From contig CAMQRS010000016.1 in NCBI GenBank assembly GCA_947036815.1, forward strand, positions 1 through 34,602: a stretch of 34,602 nt of DNA. The letters are read 5' to 3'. Shown one piece after another: positions 146 to 8,076 of this stretch. This DNA is from an uncultured Erysipelotrichaceae bacterium. GTDB taxonomy: Bacteria; Bacillota_I; Bacilli_A; Erysipelotrichales; Erysipelotrichaceae. Below the pieces are notes generated by a model, which was not told where the DNA came from, made no database searches, and worked only from the letters and a program-made list of their open reading frames with translations. Made by a program: the position numbers and the translations under genes. How positions within the stretch are numbered: the first letter of the stretch is position 1; each line of letters opens with the position of its first letter.

Positions 146-1534
146 TTAATCAAAATCGTCCTCGCACATTGACAAAGACTGTCTAAATTCTTCTGCTAAT
201 ATTGATTTGTTGAATTCAGCCGTTGGTTGTAATTCAAGAACAATACTTTCTAACTCATCAATTGATTTTTTGAAAAATTCTTTTCTCATGTTCACCTTAT
301 TTAAACGGTTCCCGTTCAATAATTTATGCATTCTTGATTCTAAATTAACCGCATCGTTTGAGAAAATAAAACTATGTACATCAAATTTAAATGGTACACT
401 TGCATCCCCAAGTTCATTCACTCTATCCATTGGGTCGAGTCTTCTTGTCATACCTACTTTAAATACATCTTCTCCAAAAGATCCTAAATTACTAATTATA
501 TAAACTGTTCCTGCTTTACCATTTTGAAGGGATTTAATCTCTTCTTTCTTTAATACAACATCCGAAAGTTGAGTTTCTAACTCCATAAGTCTTTTTTTCA
601 ATAATTCGATTTCGTCATGACTAGTACAACTAACAAGTTGTTCATTTAATTTGATCATTTGTTGATTGTACTTTTCTTCTTCTTTTTGGATTTTCTTTTG
701 CTCTATCTCAAGAGCCTTACGCTCTTCCGATTCCTGTCTCATTTGTGCTTTTAATGCTAATTGTTCTTGTTTTGCTTGTTCTTTTTTTACATAGTAATTA
801 TATTCGATTTTAATTGAATTAATAAATAGATATTCTATCTCTCCGATGAACTTAGTTATAGTTCCAGCTATACTTTGATTTCCTTCACTTGATATAGACA
901 GATATTTAGATGTCATTTCTTTCAAAGACTCTATAGCTACATCTAATTTTTCATATTTCATTTGTACCAAGATATTTTGTAATTCAGCTTGTAACGCTAT
1001 AACCATAAGAGTGTATATAGTTTTATTAGTTTTAGTTGTATACCTGCTTTTATATTGTTCTAAAAGTTTTTCTATCTCTTTTTTATTAATATTATTTGCA
1101 ATTCTAAGATCACTAACATTCATTGAATTCAACTTTAAAATTACAGTAGGAAAAAACTCATCGACATATTTTACATCACTACAATTAAGTTTGCAATGAC
1201 TAAAATCAACATCTTTCTCAAAGAAATTTCCAATAGAATACTCTATGGCTTTCAAAATCTCTTTATTCTTATATATTTTATTAATCGAAGTTTTAAGTTG
1301 TTTTTCTTTTGTTGTAGATTGGATAGTTAATTCTTCAATTTCTTGTTTCAGTTCATTAATAATTAATGAATGATTTTCCATATCCACAGTCATCTCATCT
1401 AAAGCATGCTTTGTTTCCGCATATTCTGTGTATCCCAAATCGTCTAACCTTTTATTGAGTAATAAGACCTCTTCGCTCAATCTTACATTCTCTAGTTTAA
1501 TTTTCCCTGCTTTTAACATATCTAATAATGACAT
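146..1534 (-). CDS. DUF4041 protein with C-terminal GIY-YIG-like (T5orf172/MUG113) nuclease domain
   Basis: The 462-aa protein has a coiled-coil N-terminus (about residues 10-85), a middle part resembling DUF4041 and a long charged helix rich in K, E and Q (about 245-335). The C-terminus, about 340-425, resembles the T5orf172/MUG113 branch of GIY-YIG nucleases. There I see GTVYIIS (342-348) in place of the GIY..YIG strands, KVGMTRR (359-365), the likely catalytic Glu399 in LESRMHKLL, and EFF at 419-421. Families with this architecture are common in phages, mobile elements and bacterial accessory regions; the substrate is not known. The ATG is preceded by a strong AGAGGGGG site. The gene sits alone, downstream of a displaced copy of the guaA 3' end, so it is probably horizontally acquired. 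A defence or phage-related role is possible but not shown by the sequence. Confidence 0.8.
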   Translation of the reverse strand: MSLLDMLKAGKIKLENVRLSEEVLLLNKRLDDLGYTEYAETKHALDEMTVDMENHSLIINELKQEIEELTIQSTTKEKQLKTSINKIYKNKEILKAIEYSIGNFFEKDVDFSHCKLNCSDVKYVDEFFPTVILKLNSMNVSDLRIANNINKKEIEKLLEQYKSRYTTKTNKTIYTLMVIALQAELQNILVQMKYEKLDVAIESLKEMTSKYLSISSEGNQSIAGTITKFIGEIEYLFINSIKIEYNYYVKKEQAKQEQLALKAQMRQESEERKALEIEQKKIQKEEEKYNQQMIKLNEQLVSCTSHDEIELLKKRLMELETQLSDVVLKKEEIKSLQNGKAGTVYIISNLGSFGEDVFKVGMTRRLDPMDRVNELGDASVPFKFDVHSFIFSNDAVNLESRMHKLLNGNRLNKVNMRKEFFKKSIDELESIVLELQPTAEFNKSILAEEFRQSLSMCEDDFD

Positions 1535-2312: not shown

Positions 2313-2975
2313 TTATTTTAATTCATCATTTTCATTGAAATATAGAAGAAAATGTTTTTCTTTACAATGAGTCACAATAAATGATTTTGGAGGAACAATT
2401 AAATTATCATTCAATTTTATATCTTTATTAAAAAGAAAATAGCTAAACATAATCGCTGGTGTATAGGTATAAAATATAGACACTACTAAAAATGAATAAG
2501 AAAAAGTTGTTAAAAAATCGCTTAAATTTAGATATATAAATATTGTTGGTACAACTATCCATAAAATAATTGTTATCAACATCATTGCTATTTCTTTATA
2601 AACTTTAACAGTTTTCCATTTATTATCTTTTATATTTACTTGTTCGTCTATTGCTATATTTTTATAAATACTGCGATATAGAATATCTGAAACTTTCGTG
2701 TGTTTAATAATAATTCGTAAAGCAACTGCAAGGATTATCGCTATATAGTATTCTTTTACCCAAATAGTCATTGCATTTATAGTAATTCCATTTTTTATCA
2801 AACAAAGTAATCCTATTATGAATAATATATAGTAAAGAATAAGTACTATAATAATTGTTTTTCCTTTATGTTCTAAAAACTTTACTGTTTTATTCATTGA
2901 TTTTACTTCCATTGGTATTTCATTAATAATTGTTTCTTTTTCTAATTTGTTCAAATGAATTTCATCTGTTTTCAT
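2313..2975 (-). CDS. Hypothetical multi-pass membrane protein, 220 aa
   Basis: I do not recognise this protein. It has a charged N-terminal tail of about 38 residues and four likely membrane segments (about 40-60, 76-91, 130-149 and 157-182). The loop between segments two and three is long and polar (92-129), and the C-terminal tail is polar and ends NENDELK. The start is supported by GGGGGA nine bases upstream. It is the last gene of a small run with the 43-aa and 71-aa ORFs upstream. A broken paralogue of the 61-aa gene begins immediately after its stop, so the C-terminus may itself be a product of rearrangement. AgrB-type processing proteases were considered, but no matching architecture or motif is evident. 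Confidence 0.65.
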   Translation of the reverse strand: MKTDEIHLNKLEKETIINEIPMEVKSMNKTVKFLEHKGKTIIIVLILYYILFIIGLLCLIKNGITINAMTIWVKEYYIAIILAVALRIIIKHTKVSDILYRSIYKNIAIDEQVNIKDNKWKTVKVYKEIAMMLITIILWIVVPTIFIYLNLSDFLTTFSYSFLVVSIFYTYTPAIMFSYFLFNKDIKLNDNLIVPPKSFIVTHCKEKHFLLYFNENDELK

Positions 2976-6228: not shown

Positions 6229-6936
6229 TTACTTAGGAAATGCGCTTTCATCTACAAAAGTATTACAATTATGGTGTAACCAAAGTAAACTTGCAGGTGT
6301 ACTTGTTGTTATTTTTTGACTCATAAAAGCTTTGAATGAATCTTCTTTTCTTTTTCCACAAACAATCATCACGACTTGTTTACTTTCAAATATTGCTTTT
6401 AATCCCAAACTAATTCCACCACTCACTGCAGTTCCTCTTACCATATCATGTGTTCTAGTCTTTTCATCTAATACTGAGTAATGACTATCATATTTTAAGT
6501 ATTCATGAGGTTCATTCAATCCTAAATGACCATTCATTCCTAATCCTAATAGCATCATATCAATACGTACTTCATTTAATTGTCCTTCTACTAATGCGAT
6601 GTTCTCTTCTACACTATCAGCATTCGAATCAAACCCAATATATTGTTTAATTGGTTGGTGTAATTTATCTAACAAATGTTCCTTAATAAATACTTCACAA
6701 GTAAAAGGTTCAGCATTATCAACTTTATACCATTCATCTAATTTAACAAAGGTAACTTCACTAATATCAAGTTTCACTTCATTTACCATTTCCACAAAAT
6801 AAGCATATGCAAGACACGGAGAATTCCCAGTAGCCAAACAAATACAAGCATCTTTTTTATCTTGAATTAAGTCAAACATTTGTGTTGCGACAACTTTTGA
6901 CATAGTTTCATAATTTTTTTCATAAAATAGTTTCAT
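6229..6936 (-). CDS. Glucosamine/galactosamine-6-phosphate deaminase-isomerase, AgaI-like
   Basis: A 235-aa member of the NagB/6-phosphogluconolactonase superfamily, which deaminates and isomerises hexosamine 6-phosphates to ketose phosphates plus ammonia. Visible blocks are CLATGNSP (phosphate loop), [21 protein letters not shown] and a [10 protein letters not shown] ending. These resemble the galactosamine-specific AgaI of E. coli more than classical NagB, which has MDEY and GIGxDGHIAFNEP. Substrate preference is therefore inference. The start at 6936 follows GAGTAGGT; an in-frame upstream codon at 6969 would overlap the promoter. The gene is divergent from the sigma-54 gene. No amino-sugar transport or nagA gene is nearby, so it may act alone. 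Downstream is guaA, 95 bases away with no clear terminator between. Confidence 0.85.
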
Positions 6937-6967
6937 ATAATACCTACTCTTTCTTTTATTCAAGTTC

Positions 6968-6982
6968 ATTATACCTTATAAT
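6968..6982. promoter_or_regulatory. Divergent -10 boxes for nagB-like and sigma-54 genes
   Basis: Two perfect TATAAT hexamers face opposite ways, three bases apart: minus strand at 6968-6973 for the deaminase gene, plus strand at 6977-6982 for the sigma factor. Neither has a strong -35. The plus-strand box is only eight bases from the ATG at 6991. The two promoters probably cannot fire at once. Confidence 0.55.
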
Positions 6983-6990
6983 ATATACAT

Positions 6991-8076
6991 ATGGAATCAA
7001 AAAATAACCAACTAAAACAATCTCTTAAAGATACGAATGTCTCACATTTATCTTTACACAACTATAAGGGATTCATACGTCCCAACAAAGAAAATCTTTA
7101 TGATGTGATAATGAAACAAGTAGACGCTAGTTCATTCAATCCAGATAAAGAAATTTGCGAGTATCTTCTTTTACAATTAAATGAGAATGGTTTCTTCAGC
7201 AATGACTATAAAACAATCATCAATAAAAGTAAATTCCCTGCCGAAGCAGTAAAGAAAACCCTAGCCTTGTTACGTACTTTCACACCTCAAGGTCTATTCT
7301 CTTTCTCTGATAAAGATTGCCTACAAATACAGTGTATCTTATCGAAGGAAGAAATATCAGAAACTGCCTTTTTATTATGTGACTATTTAGATGAAATTAG
7401 ACTACAAAAGTATTCGTTTATTATGCGTAAATGCAAGGTTTCTCATTCTTATATTATGAGTGCTATCCAGTTTCTTGAACAATTAAACATTACCCCTACT
7501 GCCAATTATATTCATAATACACAAATGCAACAGCCTACCTTTATCATCACTTACGAAGATGATAACTTACAACTTATCTATAATGAAAAAGACGGTTCTA
7601 CTAGCGTATTACCTATTGAAACAATGAGTCGTGATCTTAAAATCAAGTACTTTCGTAAGCCTATCTGCTTAGTGATGATTTATTTGTGTCATTACCAAAA
7701 AACATTCTTTACGAACCACGATAATATTAGCTACTTAACACTCGCAATGATTAGTAAAGAAACAAACTTGCATCTATCGACCATTGCTAAATTAATACAA
7801 CATAAAACCTATTCGTACCAAAATAAGATACATGCCTTAAAAACATTAACGAATGCGAATGGTACTAAGGAAGCAAGTGCGCAAGTGATTAAACAACACA
7901 TTATTAATTATGTGAAAGAAGAAGACAAGGCGCATCCCTTAAGTGATGCACAGATTCAAGCAAAATTACTAGATGAGTATCAAATTACGATCGCTAGAAG
8001 AACGATTGTTAAATATCGTGAATCTTGCTTCATCTTCAATTCTAATAAAAGGAGAAATAAAAAAAGCGATAATTAA
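6991..8076 (+). CDS. rpoN: Diverged RNA polymerase sigma-54 factor lacking region I
   Basis: A 361-aa sigma-54 (RpoN/SigL) family protein, which directs core polymerase to -24/-12 promoters. From about residue 36 it aligns with the core-binding region (LYDVIMKQV, EYLLLQLNENGFF, FTPQGL then DCLQIQ). The DNA-binding part has a helix-turn-helix around TLAMISKETNLHLSTIAKLI and a near-canonical RpoN box, ARRTIVKYRE. Family members are usually about 430-480 aa. The missing part is the N-terminal, glutamine-rich region I that contacts AAA+ activators and holds the complex inactive. An in-frame TAA 10-12 bases upstream of the ATG rules out an extension. No Shine-Dalgarno is visible. The usual GAR after the PxG motif and the recognition-helix arginine (here Lys) are also changed. 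Confidence 0.85.
   Translation: MESKNNQLKQSLKDTNVSHLSLHNYKGFIRPNKENLYDVIMKQVDASSFNPDKEICEYLLLQLNENGFFSNDYKTIINKSKFPAEAVKKTLALLRTFTPQGLFSFSDKDCLQIQCILSKEEISETAFLLCDYLDEIRLQKYSFIMRKCKVSHSYIMSAIQFLEQLNITPTANYIHNTQMQQPTFIITYEDDNLQLIYNEKDGSTSVLPIETMSRDLKIKYFRKPICLVMIYLCHYQKTFFTNHDNISYLTLAMISKETNLHLSTIAKLIQHKTYSYQNKIHALKTLTNANGTKEASAQVIKQHIINYVKEEDKAHPLSDAQIQAKLLDEYQITIARRTIVKYRESCFIFNSNKRRNKKSDN

What the first reader, a model, noticed from the sequence alone, without database searches (positions are those of the whole stretch)
6991..8076. Sigma-54 factor without its activator-interacting region I
The protein aligns with RpoN from the core-binding region to an intact RpoN box but begins about 50 residues late. 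An in-frame stop just upstream rules out an extension. Region I normally enforces dependence on AAA+ activators, and its deletion in classical RpoN allows bypass transcription. The GAR after PxG and the recognition-helix Arg are also changed. It could be an activator-independent or differently gated sigma-54.
Basis: partly seen in the sequence, partly recalled or inferred. Interest (0 to 1): 0.65.

Follow-up and report, generated by a model that had tools for sequence, protein, structure and literature searches.

The report
Sigma-54 that lost its gate
This bacterium carries a single sigma-54 transcription factor that has lost the parts that make it wait for an ATP-burning activator, in a genome that appears to have no working activator, while the parts that grip RNA polymerase and promoter DNA are still conserved; it is either a rare natural escape from activator control or a relic caught part-way to loss.

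Summary
The ORF at 6991-8076 is the only sigma-54 in its genome. Its first 40 residues do not resemble region I, and no frame nearby hides one. It has also lost 12 of 39 columns of the extra-long helix (ELH). The R336 and R383 equivalents, invariant in 109 of 109 other sigma-54s examined, are Phe221 and Lys267.

The genome has no GA[FY]TGA motif in six frames; six relatives each have at least one. Its only bEBP-like protein lacks both the GAFTGA loop and Walker B. In relatives this rpoN type usually sits near an intact LevR/PTS cluster with a -24/-12 promoter; here it stands alone.

Acceleration is domain-specific: linker, ELH and helix-turn-helix evolve 3-5 times faster than in relatives, the core-binding domain 1.5 times, the -24-reading RpoN domain 1.2 times. 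The ORF has no stop.

Best reading: a sigma-54 that outlived its activators, whose ATPase-operated gate has been dismantled, but which still binds polymerase and -24 DNA. Whether it transcribes, occludes promoters or is dying cannot be told from sequence; meningococcal sigma-N is a cautionary precedent. 'Activator-independent sigma' is possible but not shown.

The parts
6991..8076 (+). sigma-54 (rpoN) ORF without region I, 361 aa; only sigma-54 of the genome
6977..6982 (+). -10-like TATAAT, 8 nt before the ATG, no Shine-Dalgarno (leaderless-like layout; 9 of 11 clade relatives have a -10-like hexamer 6-9 nt before the ATG, 7 of them with at least 5/6 matches)
6979..6981 (+). in-frame stop TAA that excludes an N-terminal extension
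6991..7083 (+). residues 1-31, no similarity to region I, predicted disordered
7084..7590 (+). core-binding domain (residues 32-200), near-normal conservation, helical part predicted with pLDDT above 90
7636..7698 (+). remnant of the extra-long helix (residues 216-236); 12 columns deleted, Pro224 lies at the break between two short helices, Phe221 replaces invariant Arg336
7768..7806 (+). -12 recognition helix-turn-helix LHLSTIAKLIQHK; Lys267 replaces invariant Arg383
7858..8073 (+). C-terminal RpoN (-24) domain, conservation normal
7993..8022 (+). RpoN box ARRTIVKYRE

Best explanation
This is a sigma-54 that has outlived its activator system and no longer carries the ATPase-operated gate. Shown: region I is absent, the ELH is shortened and (in the model) broken, the R336 and R383 equivalents are replaced, no GAFTGA motif is detectable in the 97%-complete genome, and the sole LevR/DagR-like regulator has no GAFTGA loop and no Walker B acid. 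Shown statistically: the RNA-polymerase-binding domain and the -24-reading RpoN domain are held close to the constraint seen in relatives, while the gating and -12 parts are not. Inferred: the protein is still made, probably from a sigma-70-type promoter directly at its ATG, and still binds RNA polymerase and GG-type -24 DNA without any AAA+ activator. Its output is most likely promoter occupancy (competition with the main sigma) or weak ungated transcription, rather than strong initiation, because the strand-separating ELH is damaged.
For: Region I absent by profile, six-frame and whole-genome search. ELH 27 of 39 columns; F221 and K267 at positions that are Arg in 109 of 109 others. AlphaFold gives helices 216-220 and 224-235 here, against one 38-residue ELH (299-336) and clear region I helices in a Clostridium control predicted from the same sequences. 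Zero GA[FY]TGA in the genome against 1-9 in each of six relatives; the only confident bEBP hit lacks GAFTGA and Walker B. GAFTGA-bearing LevR genes have a -24/-12 site scoring at least 9/11 within 150 nt downstream in 15 of 17; GAFTGA-less ones, including the own copy, 0 of 9. Terminal-branch ratio, window against relatives: CBD 1.5, link 4.2, ELH 5.4, HTH 3.1, RpoN domain 1.2. Relative identity: RpoN domain 0.97 (CI 0.86-1.06), link+ELH+HTH 0.61 (0.49-0.72). Conserved sites kept 15/17 against 10/26, Fisher p=0.0016. MurD of the same genome is not clearly accelerated. No stop or frameshift although 100 neutral replacements would meet about 8 stops.
Against: There are no strains or same-genus species to test present-day selection. 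No convincing intergenic -24/-12 promoter was found, so no target is known. Meningococcal sigma-N also keeps an in-frame RpoN box in 93% of isolates, yet was undetectable and without effect on pilE (PMC6755734). The neutral-decay argument covers the past branch, not necessarily the present. About 2.5% of the genome may be missing. Region boundaries come from an alignment in which the fast regions are the least certain.
Confidence: 0.5

Rival explanations
1. Relic on the way to loss: after the last activator was lost the gene had no job, it has been decaying, and the protein is absent or inert.
For: Activators and canonical promoters appear gone. rpoN is patchy in this family: 45 of 273 genomes have a match. 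The gene no longer sits near a LevR/PTS cluster. Branch accelerated about 2-fold overall. Direct precedent in Neisseria (PMC6755734).
Against: Acceleration is confined to the gating and -12 parts, with the RpoN domain at normal rate. ORF fully open despite many replacements; -10-like box retained at the distance seen in relatives. Indels are in frame.
Confidence: 0.35
2. Activator-independent (bypass) sigma factor that productively initiates transcription at its own set of promoters. (A stronger, more specific form of the best explanation.)
For: Region I deletion or R336A allows activator-free transcription in vitro (PMC5505868, PMC7057263); here both the region I and the R336 sites are lost; a non-consensus -12 contact also favours bypass (PMC4551910; discussion of PMC6755734).
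Against: Bypass in vitro needs a pre-opened bubble (PMC5505868, PMC7057263); deltaRI sigma-54 is nearly silent in vivo (PMC4551910); the ELH, which inserts between strands in the open complex, is shortened; no candidate promoters found.
Confidence: 0.15
3. Gated system whose activator lies in the unassembled 2-3% of the genome, with an unusual activator contact replacing region I.
For: Completeness is 97.45%, so absence is not proven.
Against: Region I and much of the ELH are missing, so even an intact bEBP would have no known docking site; relatives carry 1-9 GAFTGA motifs.
Confidence: 0.04
4. Assembly or sequencing artefact (frameshift or chimeric join) hiding a normal region I.
For: Draft assembly of 68 contigs.
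Against: No region I in any nearby frame or elsewhere in the genome; the ELH loss and both Arg replacements are independent of the 5' end; the -10/ATG layout matches relatives.
Confidence: 0.02

Closest known systems
Sigma-54 / RpoN (SigL), full length
   Same: Core-binding domain, RpoN domain and RpoN box; best PDB sequence and fold matches are all sigma-54 chains
   Different: No region I, shortened ELH, R336 to F, R383 to K, no AAA+ activator detectable in the genome
Engineered deltaRI and R336A sigma-54 bypass forms (PMC5505868, PMC4551910)
   Same: The same two contacts that hold the gate shut are removed
   Different: Natural, combined with loss of ELH length and of the -12 recognition Arg, and with loss of activators from the genome
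Neisseria meningitidis sigma-N / gonococcal RLS (PMC6755734)
   Same: Degenerate natural rpoN, RpoN box retained in 93% of isolates, no GAFTGA bEBP, activator truncated
   Different: The meningococcal form lost the HTH; here region I and much of the ELH are lost, and the HTH is altered but present
LevR/DagR-type PRD activators with mannose-class PTS operons
   Same: In relatives the same rpoN clade usually sits near GAFTGA-bearing LevR genes with -24/-12 promoters
   Different: The own LevR-like protein (G000:C26, L059:7763-10519) has no GAFTGA, no Walker B DE and no -24/-12 site

Membership tests
Sigma-54 (RpoN) | Core-binding domain (PF04963) | tested here: met
   3e-27, residues 32-200
Sigma-54 (RpoN) | DNA-binding domain with RpoN box ARRTVAKYRE | tested here: met
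   PF04552 3.6e-25; ARRTIVKYRE
Sigma-54 (RpoN) | Region I, activator-interacting domain (PF00309) | tested here: not met
Sigma-54 (RpoN) | Full-length ELH with the R336 contact | tested here: not met
   27 of 39 columns, Phe in place of Arg; helix broken in the model, intact in the control
Sigma-54 (RpoN) | -12 recognition helix with R383 | tested here: not met
   Lys267; Arg in 109 of 109 others
Sigma-54 (RpoN) | NCBIfam rpoN_sigma TIGR02395 cut-off (277 bits) | tested here: not met
   176.6 bits
Sigma-54 (RpoN) | Cognate GAFTGA AAA+ activator in the genome | tested here: not met
   0 motifs; genome 97% complete
Sigma-54 (RpoN) | Transcribes -24/-12 promoters with core RNAP | not testable with these tools
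   needs biochemistry
bEBP (own LevR/DagR-like protein, outside the window) | GAFTGA loop and Walker B DE | tested here: not met
bEBP (own LevR/DagR-like protein, outside the window) | Walker A and PRD/EIIA domains | tested here: met
Pseudogene | Stops, frameshifts or uniform loss of constraint | tested here: not met
   open ORF; RpoN domain at normal rate

The most novel reading that the evidence does not exclude
A naturally evolved sigma-54 that initiates transcription without any AAA+ activator: the escape from activator control that has been made in the laboratory but that, according to PMC4551910, has seemingly not or only rarely evolved in nature.
Probability: 0.15. Interest if true: 0.88.

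Novelty: new variant of a known kind. Interest (0 to 1): 0.6.

Why it matters
Why sigma-54 seems not, or only rarely, to have evolved activator independence has been called unclear (PMC4551910). Here the gate (region I, ELH, R336), the -12 contact (R383) and the key (GAFTGA activators, -24/-12 promoters) have all been lost in one lineage, while polymerase and -24 binding stay constrained. That is a natural experiment that makes the question testable with one protein. It also hints at the order in which a sigma-54 system comes apart: LevR-like proteins without GAFTGA already occur in relatives that still have working ones.

Tried and rejected
(1) A hidden region I by upstream start or frameshift: rejected. 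(2) A second, full-length rpoN in the genome: none. (3) The N-terminal 'QLKQSLKDTN' as a region I remnant: it looked alike by eye, but scores no better than shuffles. (4) Missing Shine-Dalgarno as a sign of decay: dropped, because most clade relatives share weak or absent SDs with a -10-like hexamer 6-9 nt before the ATG. (5) Close relatives by genome-contig scan with the window protein: none; the scan with the clade alignment returned general sigma-54s only, which were used as a reference panel and for the structure alignment. (6) -24/-12 regulon of the own genome: 8 strict sites against 3 in the control, none convincingly intergenic. (8) dN/dS was not possible: no congener is held.

Full report
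WHAT IS THERE. The ORF at 6991-8076 (+) encodes 361 residues and is closed upstream by TAA at 6979-6981. It lies between nagB and an ArsC/Spx-like gene, among housekeeping genes (guaA, trpS, murD, mraY; identities from sequence and Pfam). Pfam finds the sigma-54 core-binding and DNA-binding domains but no activator-interacting domain. NCBIfam rpoN_sigma scores 176.6 bits, below its cut-off of 277. It is the only sigma-54 in the 1.68-Mb, 97.45%-complete genome.

REGION I IS REALLY ABSENT. A profile of region I from 11 relatives gives the window's first 40 residues 1.7 bits, which 154 of 500 shuffles equal or beat. Region I of 16 other family sigma-54s scores 15-47 bits, and two more score 7-10. 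No frame of 6501-7300 holds one, and a whole-genome search with PF00309 finds only one weak hit at E=2.4, elsewhere. Among the other 46 order-level genomes with a match, I saw no comparable intact, region-I-less frame; the few short frames are at contig ends or frameshifted.

MORE IS MISSING. Against 28 family and 81 other sigma-54s (E. coli plus 80 from many phyla), the window has 27 of the 39 columns of the extra-long helix, where all others have 38 or 39. The R336 equivalent is Phe221 and the R383 equivalent Lys267; both are Arg in all 109 others. AlphaFold with a 32-sequence alignment gives a confident core-binding domain and RpoN domain, a disordered N-terminus, and two short helices (216-220, 224-235) in place of the ELH. 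The same sequences with Clostridium tertium sigma-54 as target give region I helices and a single 38-residue ELH. The best PDB folds are all sigma-54 chains; their TM-scores are low, which I put down to the arbitrary domain arrangement of an isolated model. Region I and the ELH together block DNA entry into polymerase, and loss of region I or of R336 removes the activator requirement in vitro on pre-melted DNA (PMC5505868, PMC7057263).

THE ACTIVATORS ARE MISSING TOO. The pattern for GA[FY]TGA occurs 0 times in this genome and 1-9 times in each of six relatives with the same rpoN clade. The only confident bEBP hit, a 919-residue LevR/DagR-like protein (G000:C26) in a mannose-class PTS operon, lacks the GAFTGA loop and reads IQQ where Walker B reads LDE. 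A second hit that passes the cut-off only when neighbouring pieces are added is, by sequence, a RarA-like ATPase. The closest relative, G147, has a GAFTGA-less homologue as well, but keeps two intact LevR genes. In most relatives the clade's rpoN sits beside or within a few kb of an intact LevR gene and a mannose-class PTS operon. A -24/-12 site scoring at least 9 of 11 lies within 150 nt downstream of 15 of 17 GAFTGA-bearing LevR genes and of 0 of 9 GAFTGA-less ones, the own copy included. Strict sites in the own genome are 8, against 3 for the reversed pattern, and none is convincingly intergenic.

IS THE PROTEIN STILL UNDER SELECTION? The window's RpoN terminal branch is 1.26 substitutions per site against 0.44-0.70 in relatives, while its MurD branch (0.39) is at the upper end of the others (0.20-0.40). 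The excess is not spread evenly. Branch ratios are CBD 1.5, link 4.2, ELH 5.4, HTH 3.1 and RpoN domain 1.2. Relative identity is 0.84 (0.73-0.96) for the CBD, 0.61 (0.49-0.72) for link+ELH+HTH and 0.97 (0.86-1.06) for the RpoN domain. Conserved sites are kept 15/17 in the RpoN domain and 10/26 in the middle part (Fisher p=0.0016). A simulation of neutral change meets about 8 stops per 100 replacements; none is seen. A TATAAT ends 8 nt before the ATG, and 9 of 11 clade relatives have a -10-like hexamer 6-9 nt before theirs, so the 5' end of the gene appears kept. These facts fit a protein whose polymerase and -24 contacts stayed useful after the gate did not. They speak for the past branch; with no congener they cannot prove present function.

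HOW IT MOST LIKELY WORKS. Shown: gate and key are both absent. Inferred: the protein binds polymerase and -24 DNA without remodelling. Whether this opens DNA is doubtful, because the ELH also separates the strands (PMC7057263) and because deltaRI sigma-54 is nearly silent in E. coli, whereas wild-type sigma-54 can repress sigma-70 promoters by competing for them (PMC4551910). Promoter occupancy or weak ungated transcription is therefore the first guess. The chief rival is a relic: meningococcal sigma-N keeps an in-frame RpoN box in 269 of 290 isolates, in a species without GAFTGA bEBPs, yet no protein was detected and neither deletion nor overexpression changed class II pilE expression (PMC6755734).

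NOVELTY. By domains and fold it descends from RpoN, but it fails four features of a working one (region I, ELH/R336, R383, cognate activator), so it is filed as a new variant, not as an ordinary member. The searches of open-access papers found no natural sigma-54 that combines these losses; subscription papers were not searched.

Noticed in passing
L070, L090-L093, L096-L098 (relatives' genomes) and L059:7763-10519: LevR/PRD-type regulators whose AAA+ domain has lost GAFTGA and usually Walker B recur in several genera, and none of these has a -24/-12 site downstream. They may act as plain PTS-regulated DNA-binding proteins.
   Followed up: partly
L030-L040, 5' ends: The clade's rpoN genes mostly have a -10-like hexamer 6-9 nt before the ATG and weak or no Shine-Dalgarno, which suggests leaderless transcripts.
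   Followed up: partly
L042 / L027-L028 (G001:C44:33554-34548): A clade rpoN in a relative is split near its 3' end by an apparent frameshift; that genome also has a full-length rpoN of another clade.
   Followed up: no
window 149-1534 (-): 462-aa protein with a C-terminal MUG113 domain (PF13455) behind a coiled-coil-like region, in a stretch with few other genes.
   Followed up: no
window 2316-2975 (-): 220-aa probable membrane protein (by eye) with no Pfam match.
   Followed up: no
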